A stretch of DNA of 64,000 nt, from contig NZ_CP100350.1 of NCBI RefSeq assembly GCF_024204685.1, positions 1 to 64,000 on the forward strand. Reading direction: 5' to 3'. The translations under genes and the position numbers were made by a program. This document shows, one piece after another, positions 22,296-48,236 of this stretch. The DNA is from Gilvimarinus sp. DA14. Lineage in GTDB: Bacteria > Pseudomonadota > Gammaproteobacteria > Pseudomonadales > Cellvibrionaceae. Position 1 is the stretch's first letter; each line of letters begins with the position of its first letter. The notes under the pieces are model-generated. The model was not told the DNA's origin. It saw nothing but the letters and a program-made list of their open reading frames with translations, and made no database searches.

Positions 22296-23915
22296 TCAAT
22301 CTGCAGCGGCCCGGCCTTTTTGCGGAAAAAGACCTTTGGGCTTTTTCTGAATAAACAGAATCAGCAGTACCAGAATCAGAACCTTGGCCAGTACGGCACC
22401 GGCAAAGGGTTCCATAAATTTATTAATCACGCCCAAGCTCATGGCGCTGACCAGAGTGCCCCATAAATTACCGACGCCGCCGAATACCACCACCATAAAC
22501 GAGTCGATGATATAGGCCTGGCCCAGGTTGGGCCCCACGTTGGTTAACTGCGACAGGGCCACCCCGGCAATGCCGGCAACGCCCGAACCCAAACCGAATG
22601 TCATGGCATCCACCCAGCTGGCGCGCACACCCACGGCGCGAGCCATGGGCCGGTTTTGCGACACAGCGCGAACCTTTAAACCCAGTGAGGTCTTTTTAAG
22701 CACTGCGAGCAGGGCGAAAAACACCATTAAACCGAACAGCAAAATGTACAGTCGGTTAAAGGTAATGGAAAACGCCGGATTGATTTGCAGCGAACCGCTC
22801 ATCCACTCCGGCAAACTGACGGCCCGGTTTAAAGGCGAGAAAATAGAACGCGCGGCCTGCTGTAAAATCAGGCTGATACCAAAAGTCGCCAGCAGGGTTT
22901 CCAGCGGGCGGCCGTACAAAAATTGAATCACGCCTCGCTCTATCGCGATACCCACCAAGCCCGACACCACAAAGGCGGCGGGAATGGCCATAAACAAACT
23001 GTATTCGATCTGATTGGGGAAGGCCTGTTGAATGACCCAGGTGGTGTAGGCGCCAATCATCATCAGCTCGCCGTGGGCCATATTGATCACGCCCATTACC
23101 CCGAAGGTAATGGCAAGGCCAATGGCAGACAGCAGCAGAACCGAGCCGAGGCTAAGACCAAAAAAGATATTCTCGCCTAAACGGAACATTTTTAACTTGC
23201 CGTCAATGGAGTCCAGCGAGCGCTGCGCCTCGGTGCGAATGCTCGATTCGGCGTCGTTGTCGGCGATACTTTGCAGCGAGCCCCGTACCTCCGGGTAGAG
23301 GGAACCGCGCAGCTCTTTAACCGCGGTTAGACGAGTGTCGTTATCGCTGCTGTCTAACTGGGCCAGGGCGATGGCGGCGGTCATGGCATCGCGCACATCG
23401 CTACTGCTTTCGTCGATTTTAAGCTGCTGTAATAGGGCAATGCTGGCGTTATCTACGCCGTCGGAAATCATCTGCTCGACCGCGTTCAAGCGAGTAGCGG
23501 CGTCATCGGCGCTTAAATTTATTTGCGCCAGCAGGGTTTTAATCTGGCTGCGTAATTTGTTGTGAATGGGAATGCGTTTGGTGCGGCCCAGACTGTCGGC
23601 GCTAACGGCCTCGCCATTGGCGGCCAGCACATAGGTGTCGGGGCCGGTTTCGATAATCACTTGGCGAGGATCGCTGCGGGTAGATTCCAGCGAACCTTCT
23701 AGCAGCGCTTTTAATACGGTTTGCGCGCGCTCGTGGTTTGTGGCGGCAATAGCTTCCACGGTTTTACCGCGTTTGCTCAAACTGCCGGAGGCGAGTTCAT
23801 CCACCAGGGTGGGAAAATCCGGTTCGGCCGGGGACTGTGCATAGGCTGAAGGCAGCGTCAATAAAAACGCGCCGAGGGCTATCCACAGGCACATTGATTT
23901 TTTTAAAAGTGCCAT
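22296..23915 (-). CDS. urtB: Urea ABC transporter permease UrtB
   Basis: A 539-residue protein. The C-terminal ~300 residues are a LivH-type permease (FGVMGVINMAHGELMMIGAY, RPLETLLATFGISLILQQ, GSGVAGIAGVALSQLTNVGP, DSFMVVVFGGVGNLWGT). The N-terminal ~240 residues are a signal peptide plus a helical HEAT-like region; this long form is the usual proteobacterial UrtB. Inner membrane; second gene of the urt operon, 88 bp after urtA. Confidence 0.92.
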   Translation of the reverse strand: MALLKKSMCLWIALGAFLLTLPSAYAQSPAEPDFPTLVDELASGSLSKRGKTVEAIAATNHERAQTVLKALLEGSLESTRSDPRQVIIETGPDTYVLAANGEAVSADSLGRTKRIPIHNKLRSQIKTLLAQINLSADDAATRLNAVEQMISDGVDNASIALLQQLKIDESSSDVRDAMTAAIALAQLDSSDNDTRLTAVKELRGSLYPEVRGSLQSIADNDAESSIRTEAQRSLDSIDGKLKMFRLGENIFFGLSLGSVLLLSAIGLAITFGVMGVINMAHGELMMIGAYTTWVIQQAFPNQIEYSLFMAIPAAFVVSGLVGIAIERGVIQFLYGRPLETLLATFGISLILQQAARSIFSPLNRAVSLPEWMSGSLQINPAFSITFNRLYILLFGLMVFFALLAVLKKTSLGLKVRAVSQNRPMARAVGVRASWVDAMTFGLGSGVAGIAGVALSQLTNVGPNLGQAYIIDSFMVVVFGGVGNLWGTLVSAMSLGVINKFMEPFAGAVLAKVLILVLLILFIQKKPKGLFPQKGRAAAD

Positions 23916-40015: not shown

Positions 40016-40609
40016 TTAGCGCTTGGGTAGGCTCTGTAAAACGTCGTTAACGGCTTTGCTGATCATCGCTTCAGCTTCCTGTGCATTTTTTTCCACTAGC
40101 TTTTTCCGGTAAACGCCCTGCCAAACTGCGCGTTTTTCAGACCAGTCCACTACATCAATATTAATAGCGCCGGTGTAGCGAATGCGGGTATTGCCGCCTT
40201 CGGTTTCTTGGGTTAAGGGTCCGCTGTACCACGAACTCCACGATTGGTAGTACCCCATACGGTTGGGCGTGATAGGTACAGCGTTGTTGAATGAATCCAG
40301 CTCGTTGTCGACTTCGGCCCGGTAGTTGATGTACAAGTCGCCACCGCTTCGCTGGTATTGGTAACCCTTTGCTTCCATAGTTTCGATAATGCTTTTATCG
40401 AAGCTTTTGCGGTAATGGTCAGAACTTGCCTCGCTGAAAAAGACCACCTCGGGCTCTTCGGTCAGAGAGAAGGTTTGGTATTGGCTAAAGTTTGCGTCTT
40501 TAACACGATGATGGCTGATATCGGGCCGTGGATTTGAACTCTGGCAGGCGGCGATTATGGCGCATAGAAAGATCAATGCCAGTTTTTGCAGTCGTGGTAA
40601 TAACATCAT
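40016..40609 (-). CDS. DUF4136 lipoprotein
   Basis: A 197-residue lipoprotein: signal peptide MMLLPRLQKLALIFLCAIIAAC with Cys as the lipid site. The DUF4136 pattern follows: NFSQYQTFSL near the N-terminus, MEAKGYQYQRSGGDLYINYRAEV, YTGAINIDVVDWSEKRAVWQGVYRKKL, and a C-terminal helix with SKAVNDVLQSLP. Envelope protein of unknown role. It follows a paralogous gene in the same direction (51-bp gap), so the two probably form an operon. Confidence 0.78.
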   Translation of the reverse strand: MMLLPRLQKLALIFLCAIIAACQSSNPRPDISHHRVKDANFSQYQTFSLTEEPEVVFFSEASSDHYRKSFDKSIIETMEAKGYQYQRSGGDLYINYRAEVDNELDSFNNAVPITPNRMGYYQSWSSWYSGPLTQETEGGNTRIRYTGAINIDVVDWSEKRAVWQGVYRKKLVEKNAQEAEAMISKAVNDVLQSLPKR

Positions 40610-40660: not shown

Positions 40661-41266
40661 TTACTTGCTTTCTTGTTCGGCAGCGCGGGTGGGGTAACGC
40701 TGGAATATTTGTGTTACAGCGCTGTTAATCGCTGCGCGCGGGTTTTCCATGGCCTCGTCGCTGAGCTTACCTTCGGCGATGCCTTCCCAAATCAGTTGTT
40801 TGGTGTCGGCATCCACCACGTCGATGTTTAGGGTGCCTACCTTGTAGTGCACGGTTTCGGTGTCATTGTACATGGGAAAGCCCATGTACAGGCCCGAGCG
40901 ATAGCCGTAGTAGCCGTAGGAGGCGGTCACTGAAGGAGAACTGCGAATGTCGGTGCGGTTTTCGGTGTTTGAGAAAAAATTCACCAGCAAATCCGGGTCA
41001 GTTTCACTATAGCTGTAACCCAGTGATTCCATTTGTTCGCGCGCGGCGGCTTTAAAGTGCGAGGTCACCAAGGTGGAGTAGCCGTGCTTATCGGTGCCCA
41101 GTGGCTCGACAAAATTAAAGGTTTTATAAGCGGTAAAGTCTGCGCTACGGTCATAATCGCTGCGGATCGTGGGTCCGGTGCTGCAGGCGGTTAATATCAG
41201 CAACAACGCTATCAGCGAAGCGGGCATCAACCCTGTGCGAATTTTATTCAATCCAGTTAATAACAT
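40661..41266 (-). CDS. DUF4136 lipoprotein
   Basis: A 201-residue lipoprotein (signal MLLTGLNKIRTGLMPASLIA, lipobox LTAC). DUF4136 blocks: DYDRSADFTAYKTFNFVEP, MESLGYSYSETDPDLLVNFFS, VGTLNIDVVDADTKQLIWEGIAEGKL and a C-terminal AVTQIFQRYP. GGAG 6 bp before the ATG at 41266 fixes the start, although the frame is open further upstream. First gene of a two-gene unit with 40016; function unknown. Confidence 0.8.
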   Translation of the reverse strand: MLLTGLNKIRTGLMPASLIALLLILTACSTGPTIRSDYDRSADFTAYKTFNFVEPLGTDKHGYSTLVTSHFKAAAREQMESLGYSYSETDPDLLVNFFSNTENRTDIRSSPSVTASYGYYGYRSGLYMGFPMYNDTETVHYKVGTLNIDVVDADTKQLIWEGIAEGKLSDEAMENPRAAINSAVTQIFQRYPTRAAEQESK

Positions 41267-41384
41267 GTCTTTCTCCAACCCTTGGTTTTGTGACTTTGCC
41301 ACAGTATATCGGTTATTTGTCTTGAGGGGCATAGGGGAGGCGCTTGCATAAACAAGCGTCCGCTCACAGCTTGGTCATGCCCAC

Positions 41385-41479: not shown

Positions 41480-42556
41480 ATGAGATCTGCCGTCACCCAA
41501 TGGACTGCAGCGGCACTGGCCCTGGCGTCAACCGCCGCTGTAGCTCACGAGTCCGCCATCAAGCCCGAGTCCCACGCCCCGGCAGGCGTAATGGTGGACC
41601 ACACCCACGCCAAGGGCGAGGTGATGACCGGCTACCGCTATATCCGCACCAGCTACAGCGATACCTTCTACGGCAGCGAAACGGTGAATGCGGCGGATTT
41701 GGCCGCGGCGGGTTACAGCATGATGGCCACCGGTATGACCATGGAAATGATCATGCTGGATATTATGTACGCCCCCACGGATAACCTCACCCTGATGCTA
41801 ATGCCTATGTATATGCGTATGGATATGGACATGGGGATGACGGGAATGGGCGGTCACGGCCACCATACTATGGACGGCATGGACGGCATGGACGGCATGG
41901 ACGGCATGGACGGTCACGATGCGCATAGCATGCACCACAGTCACGGTATCTCGGACTGGGGCGATACCAACGTCAGCGCTCTGTACAACTGGACTAACAA
42001 CCCAGCGCACCAATTTATTACCACCCTGGGAATCAATATGCCCACCGGTAAGGTGGATTTAAAAAATCCCGACGGTACCTTTGTGCACTATGGTATGCAG
42101 CCGGGCTCGGGCACCTGGGATCTGACTCCCTCGATCACCTACACCGGCATGGTCGGGCACTTTAACTGGGGGCTACAGGGCAGCGCGGTGATCCGCCTGG
42201 AGGACGAAAACGACTCTGGCTACGCCCTGGGCGACAAATACGCCGCCACCGCGTGGGGCGCGGTGCGCCTGCTCGACTGGATGAGCGTATCCGCCCGTCT
42301 GGAATGGTCTGATCAGGATGCCATTAGCGGTCATTACAATGGTCCCCACAACCATTCCAGCCCCGCCGATATTCAGGCCAACTACGGCGGCGAATTTCTC
42401 GATGCCGGCATTGGTATTAACACGGTGGTTACCGGCGGTCAGTTTGCTGGTGTGCGTTTAGGCGTAGAGTGGGTTACCCGTATTGATGAAGATTATAACG
42501 GCTATCAATTAGGCCTGGACGACGGCGTGAACGTGAGCTTGTCTTATGCGTTTTAA
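41480..42556 (+). CDS. His/Met-rich outer-membrane beta-barrel protein, possibly metal-related
   Basis: A 358-residue protein with a signal peptide (MRSAVTQWTAAALALASTAAVA). It has an aromatic, beta-strand-rich sequence ending in LSYAF, the usual C-terminal Phe of outer-membrane barrels, and resembles the phenol-degradation/transporter-like barrel group. Near residues 110-160 there is a long Met-rich stretch (LMLMPMYMRMDMDMGM) and a His-rich loop (GHGHHTM, DGHDAHSMHHSHG) with five GMD repeats, suggestive of copper or other metal binding. CGGAG 7 bp before the ATG at 41480. A 140-bp fragment of a second copy survives at 44793. Function is not proven. Confidence 0.65.
   Translation: MRSAVTQWTAAALALASTAAVAHESAIKPESHAPAGVMVDHTHAKGEVMTGYRYIRTSYSDTFYGSETVNAADLAAAGYSMMATGMTMEMIMLDIMYAPTDNLTLMLMPMYMRMDMDMGMTGMGGHGHHTMDGMDGMDGMDGMDGHDAHSMHHSHGISDWGDTNVSALYNWTNNPAHQFITTLGINMPTGKVDLKNPDGTFVHYGMQPGSGTWDLTPSITYTGMVGHFNWGLQGSAVIRLEDENDSGYALGDKYAATAWGAVRLLDWMSVSARLEWSDQDAISGHYNGPHNHSSPADIQANYGGEFLDAGIGINTVVTGGQFAGVRLGVEWVTRIDEDYNGYQLGLDDGVNVSLSYAF
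41870..41914 (+). repeat. 9-bp coding tandem repeat (Met-Asp-Gly), five units
   Basis: ATGGACGGC repeated five times in frame (last unit ends in T), giving (MDG)5 in the metal-binding-like loop of the outer-membrane protein. It is prone to slippage, so the number of units may vary between strains. Confidence 0.85.
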
Positions 42557-42586
42557 AGCTTGATCTGGCGCTAGCTAGCTGGAGGT

Positions 42587-42610
42587 GGGAGGCTTAAATT
42601 TAAGCCTCCC
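42587..42610. terminator. 24-bp perfect palindrome between convergent genes
   Basis: GGGAGGCTTAAA directly followed by TTTAAGCCTCCC. It lies between the convergent stops at 42556 and 42635 and can form a hairpin with a small AT loop, so it may act as a bidirectional terminator, though no long T run follows. Confidence 0.6.
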
Positions 42611-42634
42611 AGGTTGGTTTGAGTGTTGGGCTTT

Positions 42635-44500
42635 CTAAAATAATGTGAGTTTGAGGTCCATGTCCAGTTCCTCGGCCCGCGTTGTCATAGCAAAGCGTCC
42701 ATCCTCTAATAAATGTATATCGACCAGCGAATGGTGCCTCACGCATAGCTGATGCACCCATTCTCCGTTTTCCCATATTTGCCAATTGCTGTAGGTTTCA
42801 CCGGTAGCGTGGGAGATATCAATAACCCGGTCAGAAGGGCAGCTATGCCCGTGGGCAAAATAATAAAGTTCTCCAGTTTGACTGACTCTTAACCTTCTCT
42901 CGGATAAACTATTTTCTTCGATAATGTCGCTACTGATTAACTCCCACTGTCCCTCATTAAAGTGATATTCATCTAAGGATTCGACAGCACCGGTATTTCT
43001 AGGCAGCGCCGTCGTATTCAGTATAAAAACACTTTTTCCGTCGCCACTTAGGTAGGAATATTGGCCATAGGGGCGGTAGGTTGATGGATTTGGGTTAATT
43101 GGCGCAGTTGCGCTTGAAACTTCCACCCATGTTTTTTCATCTGAACCTTGTTGTTGTGCAAAAAAATGGAGTTCGCCCTGATTGTTCTCATTGTAGGGGC
43201 TGCGACTGATCATCACCGAGGCATCGGCAGATATAGCGACATCAGGCCCAAAGGTGTCGTACTCAGACGTTACTGTCTCCGTTAACTGCCAGCCTGTGTC
43301 GGTGCGTTGCCAAGCCTCGACCATTCCGCTGCTGTTCCAGGGAAATGCCGGTGTCCACTCCACGTAGAAATAATCGTAGATCGAGCTGGCCAGAATCAAA
43401 GTGCCATCGCGAGACACGGCAAGCGATCCTCCAAAGCGGATGTAGCTTTCCGTCGATTGCGAGTAAAGAATTTCTTCTAGCTGCCAGCTGCCACCGGATT
43501 TTTCATAGACGTGTACTTTCCCCATGCTCTCAGCGATTTCGTCACGAACAAAGGGGCCAAACCTATATTCTCCAACAACCTGGTCGTATTCTGTGAAACC
43601 AATAGCCAGCACTGAACCGTCGTAGGACGTTTCAATTGTATTGAATGGCGTAACGGCAATGTCAGGTACAGCTAATTGTTGTGTTTTTTCCCACTGCGCG
43701 TCCGTCAGGGTGTAAATATGAACATGAGTACAGTTATTGTCTGCGCCCGGCTCGACGCAATCGGGTTGCTGATAAAGCAAGAATGCAGTATTACCATCAC
43801 CGCTAACAGCAGAGAACTCTTGTGTCTCTGGACTGAAGCCTATTTCTTCAACGCTTATAGTGGGCCACTGTGCGATAGCTGCCAACGCTATAGCTTGAGA
43901 GTGCGCACAGGCTTGGGCGTCACACAGGGCCAGCCGATATCGCTCAGTACTGATTTCTCGCAGCGACGCGTTAAACGCATAGTGATCAATAGTGCCGGTA
44001 AATGTTTGTACTGGTGTGAAGTCGGTCTCCTGCTCTGCTTGACGCTCTATGCGATACTCTTGGAATCCCTCCAGGTTTTGCCATTGCAAAGAGAAGGCTC
44101 GGGGGGCCGTTTGCACCATCTCAAGGCTAGGCTCGCTGATTACAAACTGAGCGGTTACTTCGCAATTGCCGGTTAGAGAGTCGATGACATAGTTGAGGTC
44201 CTCTCTTACTCCTGCACAACCCGAGACCTCACCAAGTTGGTATCCCTCGGCCGGGATGACCTCAAACTGGAGTCTGTCACCCTCCAATGCTGTAGCGCTT
44301 GAGGGGCTTATAGCGCCTCCGAGTGAGGTCGCTGTGGTCACCTCAAGTCGAGCCGCGCTGCTTGAGCTGCTTAAGCTACTTGAACTGGTAGAGCTTGATG
44401 CGACTGAGTTGGCGCTGCCATTTTCAGAACCGCCACAGGCGCTTAGCATGAGCAGCAAGCCGAAGCTCAGGATTGTGGTAACTGCGGGATTTCCTTGCAT
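42635..44500 (-). CDS. Beta-propeller-like lipoprotein, paralogue A
   Basis: A 621-residue lipoprotein (MQGNPAVTTILSFGLLLMLSAC). A Ser-rich linker is followed by a short beta domain like the InlB-type B-repeat (GGAISPSSATALEGDRLQFEVIPAEGYQLGEVSGC), then an FN3-like segment (LQWQNLEGFQEYRIERQ). From about residue 220 come repeated blade-like units (AVSGDGNTAFLLY, SYDGSVLAIG, AVSRDGTLILASS, YLSGDGKSVFIL), as in FG-GAP or integrin-type propellers. GGAG 7 bp before the ATG. It is a clear paralogue of the gene at 44961. Surface or periplasmic side of the outer membrane; role unknown. Confidence 0.75.
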   Translation of the reverse strand: MQGNPAVTTILSFGLLLMLSACGGSENGSANSVASSSTSSSSLSSSSSAARLEVTTATSLGGAISPSSATALEGDRLQFEVIPAEGYQLGEVSGCAGVREDLNYVIDSLTGNCEVTAQFVISEPSLEMVQTAPRAFSLQWQNLEGFQEYRIERQAEQETDFTPVQTFTGTIDHYAFNASLREISTERYRLALCDAQACAHSQAIALAAIAQWPTISVEEIGFSPETQEFSAVSGDGNTAFLLYQQPDCVEPGADNNCTHVHIYTLTDAQWEKTQQLAVPDIAVTPFNTIETSYDGSVLAIGFTEYDQVVGEYRFGPFVRDEIAESMGKVHVYEKSGGSWQLEEILYSQSTESYIRFGGSLAVSRDGTLILASSIYDYFYVEWTPAFPWNSSGMVEAWQRTDTGWQLTETVTSEYDTFGPDVAISADASVMISRSPYNENNQGELHFFAQQQGSDEKTWVEVSSATAPINPNPSTYRPYGQYSYLSGDGKSVFILNTTALPRNTGAVESLDEYHFNEGQWELISSDIIEENSLSERRLRVSQTGELYYFAHGHSCPSDRVIDISHATGETYSNWQIWENGEWVHQLCVRHHSLVDIHLLEDGRFAMTTRAEELDMDLKLTLF

Positions 44501-44659
44501 GACAATTCTCCAGTGAACTTTAGGGAGAATTGTAAATTACGGTTTATAGAAGATCTTTAGCCGGTACAATTTTTAACAGTGGGCTAATGCCAGAGGTTAA
44601 AGAATGGACTCTCTTAAGTCTGGGTTGGCAGGTGTTGACTTTTTTAAGCTTATCTTTTC

Positions 44660-44785
44660 AGCGCAAACTCTGCAAAAACGTCACGAGTCAATGCCGGACA
44701 GACAAACTTCACATAGGAGGGTCAAATTTTCCAGAATAGAGTATGTTCTAATTCCGGATGGCCCTGGCCGAGTTCTTTATCCAGC
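44660..44785 (-). pseudogene. Remnant of the 3' end of an SNF symporter gene
   Basis: The stretch beginning GCGCAAACTCTGCAAAAACG at 44661 resembles 46891-47015, the 3' end of the SNF symporter gene (CGCAAACTCTGCACAAACG, then AGATTTTCCAGAA vs AAATTTTCCAGAA, TTCCGGATGGCC vs TTCCGGGTGGCC). No usable start or full domain is present. The upstream spacer also shares GTACAATTTTTAACAG with the other copy (44564-44579 and 46849-46864). Confidence 0.75.
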
Positions 44786-44792
44786 CGGCACT

Positions 44793-44932
44793 ATGCGCAT
44801 AGCATGCACTAAAGTCACGGTATATCGGTCTGGGGCGATACCAATGTTAGCGCTCTTTACAATTGGACTAACAACGCAGCGCACCAATTTATTACCACCC
44901 GAGGGATCAATATGCCCACCGGGCAGGGGTTT
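44793..44932 (+). pseudogene. Remnant of the His/Met-rich outer-membrane gene
   Basis: This fragment matches about 41922-42060 of the outer-membrane gene (ATGCGCATAGCATGCAC, GGGGCGATACCAA, TTGGACTAACAAC, GCGCACCAATTTATTACCACC, ATCAATATGCCCACCGG). In the original frame a CAC codon has become TAA, so it is dead. It begins a few bases after the end of the symporter remnant. Confidence 0.85.
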
Positions 44933-44960
44933 CTTATCGAAGGGGCTAGGTATTTTGACG

Positions 44961-46781
44961 TTAAAACAATAAAAATAAAAAATTTTCAGATTTTTGATTA
45001 AGCACTAATACCATAGTTCCGTCTTCCAGGGCTTGTATGTGTTGGGCATATCCTTCAGCCTGAAAGCAGATCTGATGGTGCCATTGTCCTTCAACCCATT
45101 CCCTTAGCTCGATGTAATGACTGTCGCTACTCGTTGATATCGAAATGACCTTATCTGCGGGACAGGTTTCGGCGACCTGTGCTTGATAAAATTGCCCATC
45201 GACTGTGACTGTTCGAGCCGGCGGTAATGAGTTGGTTTCGATAATATCACTCGATAGTAATTGCCACTCGCCATCGGTTTTTGTAAAAGTATCAATAGAT
45301 TCAATCAGATCGGGGTCGTTTTGCAGAAAGTTTGTGCTTTCGACGTAGAGTGTCTCGCCGTCGCCACTGAGGTGCGAATTGGCCCCATAGGTAGAGTTTG
45401 GGTTTGTGATGGACTCATCCAGTTGGGTTGAAAAGCTATTTTGCCGCGTCCAGATATTGTCTGCTCGGGCGAAAATATGAATGCTGCCTGTGGCGTCGCG
45501 ATGACTACCTAGTTCATCGCTGGATCGTGCTACCAGCACATTGCCATCGTCCGAAAGCTTAGCGTCGGCGCCAAAATACTCTCCGGTATCGATATCTATG
45601 GCCTGGTCAAATTGCCATTCGCCGGTTTTATTACTCCAAAGCTCAAGCTTTTCAGTGCTAAACCAATACGACCATGGCGGTTGCGGCGTGATGTCTAACC
45701 AGGCGCCAGGGCCACCATACGACGAGCCGGCCACTAAGGTTTTTCCATCCGCCGAGAGCGCCACCGAGCCGCCAAAGCGCCGCAATTCTCCTGGCCACTG
45801 CGAGACAATTATTTGCGGCTCGCTCCATTGGCTGTTGGTTTTCTTGTAAAGGTAAATAACGCCGGCGCGCCGGCTCTGCTCAATTTGATCGGGCAGCTGC
45901 ACCGAGTGTTGCTCAGCCGCTACTACCAATACATCGCCACTTTCAGAGGTTGTTACTGTAGGTGTAGTAGTCCCGCTTTCAATCAGCCGCTCAGATACGG
46001 GTAAAATAAGGCGATCGGTCTTAGTCCATTGGTCGTCTGTTTTGTTGTAAACATCAATGCCATAACACCCGTGACAGTCACCTTCGGGGTTGACGATATA
46101 GGCGGCACGACCATTTTGGCTGAAGATTATCTCACTGTGGTTTGCGTCATCACTGGCGGGCACTGCAAATGTCTCTATAAAACCTGCGGCTTGGTCGATT
46201 AGCTCGGCGGTATTAGAGTCGGTGCAAGTGTCATTAATGCACGCCTGAACTTTATAAACGCCAGAGGTGGTCTTCTCAATCGAGGCGGTAAATGTGTACT
46301 CATGGGTCGTTGCGGGTAAGGTGGCGATTGTGTCAAATGTGCCCGGCTCCGGCGCCAAACGTTGTACACGATACTCGTCGATAGCGGCCCCTGTGCTACT
46401 CCATTGCAGGGTAACTTGTCGCCCAGGGTTCGCGGTTAGTGTGAGTGTAGGAGGGGTTATTTCAAAATCTGCTGTCACCATGCAGTCGTCATTGACACTG
46501 CTAATAACATAGTCGCTACCGTTAAGCTCGCCATCGCAACCGGATATTGACGCTAGCTGGTAACCTGCATGGGAGGTGACGGCAAGCGTTGCTTCGCTTT
46601 GCGCGTCGATTATTAGCTCGCTAGGGGTAAGGGTGCCGCCTGTTGATGACTCGGTAGAAATGGTAATTTGCGCAGCCGCAGAGCTTGAGCTTCCGCCATT
46701 ATTCGAGTCGCCGCCGCATGCGGCTAACAATAGTGAGCAAACCGCGATTGAGGCCGGTCCGATATAGCCTGTGATTCTCAT
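44961..46781 (-). CDS. Beta-propeller-like lipoprotein, paralogue B
   Basis: A 606-residue lipoprotein (MRITGYIGPASIAVCSLLLAAC) with the same layout as paralogue A: Ser/Asn-rich linker, B-repeat-like unit (GGTLTPSELIIDAQSEATLAVTSHAGYQLASISGC), FN3-like segment (TLQWSSTGAAIDEYRVQRL) and propeller-like repeats (ALSADGKTLVAGSSYGG, KLSDDGNVLVARSS, HLSGDGETLYVES). GGGAG 6 bp before the ATG at 46781. The following SNF symporter gene reads in the same direction, upstream of it (gap about 105 bp), so the two may be cotranscribed. Confidence 0.75.
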   Translation of the reverse strand: MRITGYIGPASIAVCSLLLAACGGDSNNGGSSSSAAAQITISTESSTGGTLTPSELIIDAQSEATLAVTSHAGYQLASISGCDGELNGSDYVISSVNDDCMVTADFEITPPTLTLTANPGRQVTLQWSSTGAAIDEYRVQRLAPEPGTFDTIATLPATTHEYTFTASIEKTTSGVYKVQACINDTCTDSNTAELIDQAAGFIETFAVPASDDANHSEIIFSQNGRAAYIVNPEGDCHGCYGIDVYNKTDDQWTKTDRLILPVSERLIESGTTTPTVTTSESGDVLVVAAEQHSVQLPDQIEQSRRAGVIYLYKKTNSQWSEPQIIVSQWPGELRRFGGSVALSADGKTLVAGSSYGGPGAWLDITPQPPWSYWFSTEKLELWSNKTGEWQFDQAIDIDTGEYFGADAKLSDDGNVLVARSSDELGSHRDATGSIHIFARADNIWTRQNSFSTQLDESITNPNSTYGANSHLSGDGETLYVESTNFLQNDPDLIESIDTFTKTDGEWQLLSSDIIETNSLPPARTVTVDGQFYQAQVAETCPADKVISISTSSDSHYIELREWVEGQWHHQICFQAEGYAQHIQALEDGTMVLVLNQKSENFLFLLF

Positions 46782-46886
46782 CCAGATCTCCCGCGCGTTA
46801 ATTTGATTACGGCAGTGTAAGCGAGTCATCTCAGGTTAGGTTGCCAAAGTACAATTTTTAACAGATGTTTTTTGCTGCAGAGAGGA

Positions 46887-48236
46887 CTATCGCAAACTCT
46901 GCACAAACGTTAGCAGTATTAACGCCGGGCAAATAAAGCGTACATAAAAAGGCCAGATTTTCCAGAAGACGGTTTTTTCGATTTCCGGGTGGCCTTTGCT
47001 TAACTCATTTAGCAGTTGATTGCGCTGCATCACCCAGCCGGCAAATACGCACAGAGCAACCCCTAAAAGTGGCTGGCCATAGACCGTGGTTACCGTAATA
47101 ACGGTATTAAACAGGGCCTCGAATTGCCAGATAATCAGCAGGCTGATTGCGAATATGGCGCCGCCCGAGAGACAGGCAGCCCGTGGACGGGAGATTTTCC
47201 AGCGCTCTACACAGACAGATACCGGTACTTCCAGCAGGGAGATGGCCGAGGTCAGTGCAGCGATGCTCATCAGCGCGAAAAACGCGATGGCAACCCAGGC
47301 CCCGGCGCTGCCCATGGTGTCGAACAGCGCGGGTAAAACCTGGAAGATTAAATCTGGCCCTGCAATTAAGCCTCCGGTGTCATTGAATACGGCGATACCC
47401 CGGGCGTCGGCGACATAAATGGCGGGCAGGATTAACAGCCCCGCCGTAAAGGCAAAGCCGGTGTCCAGCAAGGTAACAGACACGCCCATGCGCGGCAGAT
47501 TATCGGTGTCGCGCAAATAAGAGCCGTATATCAGCATGGTGCCAACCCCCAGCGATAGGGAGAAAAAGGCCTGCCCCAGCGCACTGAGAATAAGCTGGGG
47601 GTCGAGTAGTTGCGACGGTGTTGGAATCAAATAGGCTGCAAGGCCTCTGCCGGCTCCCGCCTGAGTAAGAACATAGATAATTAAGCCCAGTAAGATGGCG
47701 AACAACAGCGGCATCAGGCGGGTTGACCAGGCCTCAATGCCTTTTTCAACACCGCGGGCGATAATGGCGATGGTGAGGCCAGACATGATGGCGCATACCA
47801 ATGCATTGCGAGCAAAACCCGCACTGTCCAGCCAGCTTTCGGTTGCGCCAGCCCCGAGCTGGGCCGCCAGCGGGCTTAAAAACTCCGACAACATCCAGCC
47901 TGCCACTATGGCGTAAAAGCTCAGAATAAATATGGCTACCGCCACCGCAGCGCTACCGCTAAGCCAGCCTGCACGGCGCAACCCAGGCTTTTCTGACAGG
48001 CTTTCTAGAGCCGTGATGACATTAGCCCGCGCGTAGCGACCAATGGTCAGTTCGGCCATCAGAGCGGGGTAGGCCAGAACAAACGCCAAGACCAGGTAAA
48101 CCAGTAAAAAGGCGCCGCCACCGTTGCTGGCGGCCTGGGTGGGAAAGCCCCAAATATTGCCCAACCCCACCGCAGAGCCCGCCGCGGCCAAGAGAAAGCC
48201 GATTTTGCTGGAGAACTGACCTCGGGTCTGTGCCAT
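46887..48236 (-). CDS. SNF-family sodium-dependent transporter
   Basis: A 449-residue neurotransmitter:sodium symporter family protein with about 11-12 helices. The N-terminus has the family signature FLLAAAGSAVGLGNIWGFPTQAASNGGGAFLL (sodium and substrate site, unwound helix 1). YGSYLRD and FFALMSIAALTSAISLLEVP are further family blocks. It probably imports an amino acid or related compound with sodium. A remnant of a second copy of its 3' end lies at 44660, beyond paralogue B. Confidence 0.88.
   Translation of the reverse strand: MAQTRGQFSSKIGFLLAAAGSAVGLGNIWGFPTQAASNGGGAFLLVYLVLAFVLAYPALMAELTIGRYARANVITALESLSEKPGLRRAGWLSGSAAVAVAIFILSFYAIVAGWMLSEFLSPLAAQLGAGATESWLDSAGFARNALVCAIMSGLTIAIIARGVEKGIEAWSTRLMPLLFAILLGLIIYVLTQAGAGRGLAAYLIPTPSQLLDPQLILSALGQAFFSLSLGVGTMLIYGSYLRDTDNLPRMGVSVTLLDTGFAFTAGLLILPAIYVADARGIAVFNDTGGLIAGPDLIFQVLPALFDTMGSAGAWVAIAFFALMSIAALTSAISLLEVPVSVCVERWKISRPRAACLSGGAIFAISLLIIWQFEALFNTVITVTTVYGQPLLGVALCVFAGWVMQRNQLLNELSKGHPEIEKTVFWKIWPFYVRFICPALILLTFVQSLR

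What the first reader, a model, noticed from the sequence alone, without database searches (positions are those of the whole stretch)
41480..48236. Tandem duplication scar: two gene remnants meet at about 44.79 kb
Seen: a remnant of the symporter 3' end (44660-44785) is directly followed by a fragment of the outer-membrane gene (44793-44932), and two paralogous lipoprotein genes flank them. This is exactly the order expected if the block outer-membrane gene / lipoprotein / symporter was duplicated in tandem and then decayed, leaving lipoproteins A and B. Both spacers also keep GTACAATTTTTAACAG. The joint between 44785 and 44793 is the novel junction.
Basis: seen in the sequence. Interest (0 to 1): 0.65.

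Follow-up and report, generated by a model that had tools for sequence, protein, structure and literature searches.

The report
Merged lipoprotein alleles with recombination scar
Between two conserved genes of a marine Gilvimarinus bacterium, two very different versions of a surface-lipoprotein gene sit side by side, separated by a short scar of the neighbouring genes, most likely because a second version was imported from a relative and added beside the first rather than because one block was copied.

Summary
In detail: a symporter (SNF) 3'-end remnant (44662-44790) is fused to an internal OM-gene fragment (44789-44927) between lipA and lipB, well above 1000 shuffles each.

A simple tandem duplication is not supported. 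The OM fragment is 89% identical to its parent, the SNF remnant 73%, and lipA/lipB only 33% in protein, where unselected copies as old as the OM fragment would keep about 77%. G002 has a single OM-lip-SNF block whose lipoprotein is 84% like lipB and 29% like lipA. The remnant keeps 5 of 15 rare states of the intact SNF tail.

The intact SNF drops from 28% to 7% divergence against G. xylanilyticus at nt 1192 (support 1180-1212); the remnant ends at nt 1194. Best reading: a donor OM-lipB-SNF-tail piece was added to a resident OM-lipA-SNF locus, joined homologously inside SNF and illegitimately at a 2-5 bp microhomology beside a repeat in OM. The junction would be a primary breakpoint, not two decayed genes meeting. 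Caution: change-points are common in this genome. A known kind of recombination, moderately interesting.

The parts
41480..42556 (+). intact outer-membrane (OM) protein gene, left flank of the variable gap; last ~280 nt unusually close to G007 (G. chinensis)
41870..41914 (+). 9-bp ATGGACGGC tandem repeat in OM; the duplicated OM piece begins right after it
42635..44500 (-). lipA, 621-aa lipoprotein (lipobox, Ser-rich linker, InlB-like domain, C-terminal beta-propeller); read as the resident allele
   Evidence: sister of lipB + G002 clade 100/100
44564..44579 (.). GTACAATTTTTAACAG upstream of lipA
   Evidence: exact matches twice in own genome and once in G002, upstream of its lipB
44662..44790 (-). 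remnant of a symporter (SNF) 3' end, ending at SNF nt 1194, with a 22-nt internal deletion; read as the native tail
44786..44790 (.). junction CGGCA: 2 bp (CA, 44789-44790) strictly shared by SNF and OM, 5 bp if the CGGCA of the OM repeat unit is counted
44789..44927 (+). OM gene fragment (OM nt 436-574), decayed, in-frame stop; its 3' part is missing
44961..46829 (-). lipB lipoprotein gene (606 aa if the start at 46781 is used); 84% aa to G002; read as the incoming allele
46849..46864 (.). GTACAATTTTTAACAG upstream of lipB, also exact in G002
46887..47045 (-). 3' tail of the intact SNF gene (nt 1192 to end), 7% from G003 (G. xylanilyticus) against 28% for the rest of the gene; read as foreign
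46887..48236 (-). SNF-family sodium:neurotransmitter-type symporter gene, intact; right flank of the variable gap
   Evidence: PF00209; matches in 7 of 7 genus relatives

Best explanation
The gap between the convergent OM and SNF genes is a place where Gilvimarinus species carry alternative lipoprotein genes. The resident state was OM - lipA - SNF with its native 3' tail. A donor piece reaching from inside OM (nt 436) through lipB to the SNF 3' tail, from a close relative that carried the lipB allele and a G. xylanilyticus-like SNF tail, was then added beside it. On one side it entered by homologous exchange inside SNF, so the intact SNF is native to about nt 1192 and donor beyond. On the other side its OM end was joined illegitimately to the cut-off native SNF tail (nt 1194), at a 2-5 bp microhomology at the edge of the OM 9-bp repeat. 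The product is OM - lipA - native SNF tail | OM fragment - lipB - SNF. Later the OM fragment lost its 3' part and both scraps decayed. Shown: the junction, the unequal divergences, the SNF change-point and the single-block relative. Inferred: that these belong to one event, the direction (lipB incoming), and the physical route (one-sided recombination, or single crossover of a circularised donor fragment).
For: 1) Against G003 the intact SNF changes from 335/1191 to 11/156 differences at nt 1192 (2-lnL support 1180-1212, gain 20.0, 0 of 200 codon shuffles). The remnant ends at SNF nt 1194. A randomly placed breakpoint would hit that interval with chance 2.4%, or 5% if the remnant's end is taken less exactly. 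2) Of 15 sites where own and G003 share a private or rare state in the tail the remnant keeps 5, while it keeps 75 of 93 of the common states; the OM fragment keeps 24 of 29 of its parent's private or rare states. So remnant and intact tail look like different alleles. 3) lipB is 76.1% identical to G002 at third positions, against 33-54% for the six flanking genes compared with G002: lipB moved between lineages. 4) lipA/lipB are 33% identical; unselected copies at 11% nt divergence would keep 77% and at 27% would keep 53%. 5) Gap content varies: empty in 3 of 7 relatives, lipB alone in G002, other and at most distantly related genes in 3 of 7. 6) The junction has short microhomology beside a tandem repeat. 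7) ComEC- and DprA-family genes are present, though 10 and 11 of 14 control genomes have matches too.
Against: Change-points are common here: 22 of 42 gene-by-genome comparisons (22 window ORFs against G003 or G007) reach 0 of 100 shuffles and 9 of 42, SNF-G003 included, have a gain of 20 or more, many at variable gene ends; so the SNF change-point is not special and only its place (2-5% by chance) is. The SNF tail is also somewhat more alike in other pairs: own-G001 34/164 vs 337/1183 (p 0.04), own-G004 81.7% in the last 109 nt against 67.3% over the gene, G003-G001 best change-point at nt 1270 (gain 4.0). Rare-state sites may be fast ones, which would lower the retention expected of a true copy. 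The OM fragment is closer to this genome's own OM (89%) than to any sampled species, so the donor must have been nearly conspecific in OM while its SNF tail was G003-like; no such donor is sampled, and G003 itself has an empty gap. Where own and G003 differ the remnant sides with G003 at 5 of 8 sites. Which of own and G003 received the shared tail cannot be told.
Confidence: 0.5

Rival explanations
1. True tandem duplication within the lineage of the unit from OM nt 436 to SNF nt 1194 (OM-lipA-SNF tail), followed by replacement of the right-hand lipoprotein and SNF tail by imported lipB plus a G003-like tail.
For: The OM fragment fits an originally identical copy that decayed: of 15 differences 8 look fragment-specific, 2 own-specific and 5 are unclear. 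The junction is exactly that of such a unit. Imported replacement explains the divergent tail and lipB; imported tracts seem common in this genome.
Against: Needs two events. It gives no reason why the imported SNF tract ends at nt 1192 when the duplicated tail ends at nt 1194.
Confidence: 0.28
2. lipA is the incomer: a donor piece OM 3' end - lipA - SNF tail entered an OM-lipB-SNF locus, anchored in OM, and its SNF end was joined illegitimately to native OM.
For: The intact OM has a 3' tract close to G007 from nt 796. G002 shows that OM-lipB-SNF can stand alone.
Against: Does not explain the change-point in the intact SNF. The OM change-point (748-825) is far from the junction at nt 436; a change-point near nt 436 is only weakly indicated (own-G003 best at 425, support 187-553, gain 5.1). 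The remnant is not G007-like (72.9%). lipB itself shows transfer relative to G002.
Confidence: 0.13
3. One reading: one tandem duplication of the whole OM-lipoprotein-SNF block, then decay of one SNF and one OM copy, leaving lipA and lipB.
For: Order and orientation of all pieces; shared GTACAATTTTTAACAG; lipA and lipB (with G002's) form one clade.
Against: Incompatible divergences of the three pairs; G002's single lipoprotein is 84% like lipB and 29% like lipA; the remnant lacks most rare states of the intact tail.
Confidence: 0.06

Closest known systems
Duplication-type integration by a single crossover with a circular donor molecule (E. coli conjugation, PMC3240628, passages read)
   Same: The product repeats the flanking homology on both sides of the insert and keeps the resident sequence; most of the 60 clones there were of this kind, 4 of 60 were HFIR.
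   Different: There a plasmid with selection, possibly re-circularised after partial degradation; here a natural chromosomal locus with two divergent alleles, and a circular intermediate is not shown.
Homology-facilitated illegitimate recombination, HFIR (S. pneumoniae, A. baylyi, P. stutzeri; as described in PMC3240628 and PMC5361080, passages read)
   Same: One homologous and one illegitimate joint, usually with 3-10 bp microhomology at the latter (3 of 4 E. coli clones had none).
   Different: The deletion of recipient DNA generally seen is absent; both resident parts are kept.
Arrays of orphan immunity genes in Vibrio cholerae T6SS clusters (PMC5361080, abstract and passages read)
   Same: An incoming module at one locus pushes parts of the older one aside and leaves them next to it, proposed by an HFIR-like route.
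   Different: There the old effector is displaced and its immunity gene kept; here no effector-immunity logic is known and both lipoprotein genes remain intact.
Transformation-made merodiploids of Streptococcus pneumoniae (PMC3784515, abstract and passages read)
   Same: Imported DNA yields a tandem duplication with a hybrid junction.
   Different: Those are about 100-900 kb and need repeats; here the added segment is now about 2.3 kb with almost no repeat at the joint.

Membership tests
simple tandem duplication followed by decay | copies of all genes in the unit have the same age | tested here: not met
   OM 15/139 vs SNF 29/107 differences, Fisher p 0.0013; lipA/lipB 33% aa
simple tandem duplication followed by decay | gene order and orientation of a head-to-tail repeat | tested here: met
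additive single-crossover (duplication-type) integration of donor DNA | flanking homology (OM part and SNF tail) present on both sides of the added segment | tested here: met
additive single-crossover (duplication-type) integration of donor DNA | the two alleles differ and one is foreign | tested here: met
   they differ; lipB shows transfer relative to G002 and the SNF tail is G003-like; direction of transfer is inferred
additive single-crossover (duplication-type) integration of donor DNA | crossover lies within the duplicated homology (SNF nt 1194 to end, or OM nt 436 to end) | tested here: inconclusive
   change-point 1192, support 1180-1212, straddles the edge
homology-facilitated illegitimate recombination | homologous joint at one end | tested here: inconclusive
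   SNF change-point at nt 1192 is clear, but such change-points are common here and its link to this event is inferred
homology-facilitated illegitimate recombination | illegitimate joint, mostly with 3-10 bp microhomology | tested here: inconclusive
   2 bp strictly, 5 bp (CGGCA) if the neighbouring OM repeat unit is counted
homology-facilitated illegitimate recombination | deletion of recipient DNA of about the size of the insert | tested here: not met
   lipA and the SNF remnant are retained
homology-facilitated illegitimate recombination | RecA dependence | not testable with these tools
   no experiment possible

The most novel reading that the evidence does not exclude
The OM-SNF gap is a dedicated allele-exchange locus for fast-diverging surface beta-propeller lipoproteins in Gilvimarinus, and this genome caught two divergent alleles being stacked by recombination exactly at the border between matching and non-matching flanks, a lipoprotein counterpart of orphan-immunity arrays driven by selection for surface diversity.
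Probability: 0.15. Interest if true: 0.6.

Novelty: new member of a known kind. Interest (0 to 1): 0.35.

Why it matters
It shows how a gene-order scar that looks like a textbook tandem duplication can instead record the stacking of two divergent alleles by recombination. Unequal divergences, and a change-point in the intact neighbour gene at the remnant's end, help to tell the two apart. It also points to a place where marine Gilvimarinus exchange surface lipoproteins.

Tried and rejected
Considered that GTACAATTTTTAACAG might be a genome-wide regulatory or mobile-element site. Rejected: with up to 1 mismatch it occurs only at the two sites in this genome. Among the 14 genomes searched (own included) the only other exact match is upstream of G002's lipB; five others have one 1-mismatch match each, places not examined. 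A consensus scan found no excess of promoter-like sites (5 found, 4.2 expected in shuffles); one of them (44543-44570) overlaps the motif copy by lipA but lies on the + strand, opposite to lipA, and none is listed at the lipB copy.

Considered that the SNF remnant comes from a G007-like donor: it is no closer to G007 (72.9%) than to own (72.9%) or G003 (74.8%). Considered a breakpoint at OM nt 436 in the intact OM: weak only.

Function of the lipoproteins: Pfam hits below cut-off, NCBIfam only weak hits far below cut-off, in the N-terminal lipoprotein-signal region. A shallow AlphaFold model (4 sequences, mean pLDDT 71.5) resembles beta-propellers, among the best 50 PDB matches many WD40 proteins with target TM about 0.6-0.7, which does not identify a ligand.

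Lipoprotein tree: 10 of the 33 rows collected were dropped before building (partial or edge-cut ORFs, a second reading of one gene, or rows matching only in the short InlB-like domain; the G001 gap ORF is among them). G007 and G004 gap genes sit on long branches, so only the lipA+(lipB,G002) clade is relied on. In 144 family genomes, with only the best 8 or 9 candidates scored per genome and E up to 1e-15, no relative of lipA closer than lipB was listed and no close lipB besides G002's. The 470-base scar region had matches in 5 of 10 genomes including own, and the four relatives' places are their own OM or SNF genes.

Papers: searches were seen only as listings. One search (Gilvimarinus with horizontal gene transfer) listed 4 papers, none about this locus by title and start of abstract. 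No other search for a published description of this locus was made.

Full report
What is there. The stretch reads OM gene (+, 41480-42556), lipA (-, 42635-44500), a symporter 3'-end remnant (44662-44790), an OM fragment (44789-44927), lipB (-, 44961-46829) and the intact symporter gene SNF (-, 46887-48236). Both scraps are far above chance: local scores 203 and 70 against maxima of 32 and 28 in 1000 dinucleotide shuffles each.

The joint. SNF similarity runs to 44790: after a 22-nt gap an exact 10-mer matches 47034-47043. OM similarity begins at 44789. The two share CA, or CGGCA if the preceding 9-bp repeat unit of OM is counted. In gene coordinates SNF nt 1194 is joined to OM nt 436, just after the ATGGACGGC tandem repeat (41870-41914). 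A joint between the inside of SNF and the inside of OM is what the primary breakpoint of an additive event looks like; no intermediate with two full genes is needed. Only the loss of the OM fragment's 3' part, before lipB, is secondary.

The relatives. Of 7 same-genus genomes, 3 (G003, G005, G006) have OM and SNF adjacent, with 63-81 bp between. G002 has the single block OM-lip-SNF. G001, G004 and G007 carry other genes in the gap, on the strand of OM. G002's lipoprotein is 84% identical to lipB and 29% to lipA. In the tree of 23 lipoproteins (10 of 33 collected rows were left out) lipA is sister to (lipB, G002) with 100/100 support; the lipA branch is 1.35, the lipB stem 1.14, and lipB and its G002 copy are about 0.18 apart. 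So lipA and lipB look like old alternatives at this place.

Dating the pieces. The OM fragment differs from OM at 15 of 139 sites: 8 look fragment-specific (codon positions 3, 1 and 4 times), 2 own-specific, 5 unclear. The SNF remnant differs at 29 of 107 (Fisher p 0.0013). lipA and lipB share 33% of residues and 45.5% of bases over 576 codons. Unselected copies would keep 77% of residues at 11% base divergence and 53% at 27%. One duplication does not give these three values, unless the OM fragment was homogenised later.

The SNF remnant is another allele. In the SNF tail the present gene and G003 (G. xylanilyticus) share 15 private or rare states. The remnant has 5 of them, while it keeps 75 of 93 common states; a copy decayed to 73-85% would keep so few with P 0.0015 to 8e-6. 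The OM fragment keeps 24 of 29 such states of OM. A caution: rare-state sites may be fast sites, which lowers the retention expected. Where own and G003 differ the remnant sides with G003 at 5 of 8 sites, with own at 2 and with neither at 1; this may only show that own changed later.

The breakpoint. Against G003 the intact SNF differs at 335 of 1191 positions before nt 1192 and at 11 of 156 after it (support 1180-1212, 0 of 200 codon shuffles as good). For the other six genomes the best SNF change-point lies at nt 145-225, with gains of 4.2-10.1 and 0 to 20 of 200 shuffles reaching them, though for G001 and G004 the support reaches nt 1271 and 1285. The remnant ends at nt 1194. If the native SNF was cut there, the cut-off tail staying beside lipA and the rest receiving a donor tail, both facts follow from one event. 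By chance a breakpoint would fall there with 2.4-5%.

The control against this. One search ran the same test on 22 window ORFs against G003 and G007: 22 of 42 comparisons reach 0 of 100 shuffles, and 9 of 42 (SNF-G003 included) have gains of 20 or more. Some are variable gene ends, some look like imported tracts (ORF 22299-23915 drops from 28% to 5% against G007). So a strong change-point is ordinary in this genome; only its position speaks for the proposed event. The tail is also somewhat more alike in the pairs own-G001 and own-G004. For this reason I hold the reading at 0.5.

lipB looks exchanged between lineages. Its third positions are 76.1% identical to G002, while the six flanking genes that have a G002 counterpart show 33-54%. 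The direction is not shown. The OM gene also carries a tract, from nt 796 on, unusually close to G007. Both flanks of the gap are thus mosaic, as expected where cassettes are exchanged through their flanks.

Mechanism. I propose that a donor OM-lipB-SNF-tail piece was added to a resident OM-lipA-SNF locus, with a homologous joint in SNF and an illegitimate one at the OM repeat. In print this resembles homology-facilitated illegitimate recombination, mostly with 3-10 bp microhomology but generally with a deletion of recipient DNA, which is absent here (PMC3240628, passages read). It resembles more the duplication-type products that the same paper ascribes to single crossovers with a circular donor molecule. 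A comparable picture, with parts of older modules pushed aside by new ones, is described for V. cholerae T6SS clusters (PMC5361080, abstract and passages), and transformation-made tandem duplications for pneumococcus (PMC3784515, abstract and passages). ComEC- and DprA-family genes are present, but 10 and 11 of the 14 control genomes match too, E. coli among them, so this is weak.

What the lipoproteins are. lipA has a lipobox and a Ser-rich linker (read from the sequence), an InlB-like domain (PF18998 just below cut-off) and weak FG-GAP similarity. A shallow model (mean pLDDT 71.5) resembles beta-propellers. That both are surface-binding lipoproteins is inference. The GTACAATTTTTAACAG motif lies upstream of both and of G002's gene and nowhere else with up to one mismatch in this genome. 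It is probably part of the shared upstream region, which suggests that lipA too comes from an OM-lip-SNF locus.

Verdict. Observation confirmed, interpretation partly supported, mechanism of a known kind, moderate interest.

Noticed in passing
window 22299-23915 (-): Gene with an abrupt change in divergence: 28% differences from G007 before nt 820 and 5% after (gain 84), probably an imported tract.
   Followed up: no
window 40019-40609 (-): DUF4136 lipoprotein-like gene with a stretch close to G007 (30% to 8% differences at nt 119); a second DUF4136 gene lies next to it at 40661-41332.
   Followed up: no
L160:8945-10831, L163:3563-5356, L165:6174-8171: On the far side of SNF, towards SmpB and the second symporter, three relatives (G001, G004, G006) hold a gene of the protein-kinase family that the ORF lists do not show at this place in the window, G002, G003, G005 or G007: a second variable gap beside SNF.
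   Followed up: partly
L160:5413-7355: In G001 the OM-SNF gap holds a 207-aa ORF with an InlB-like domain and a 417-aa ORF without Pfam or NCBIfam match, possibly one broken lipoprotein gene.
   Followed up: no
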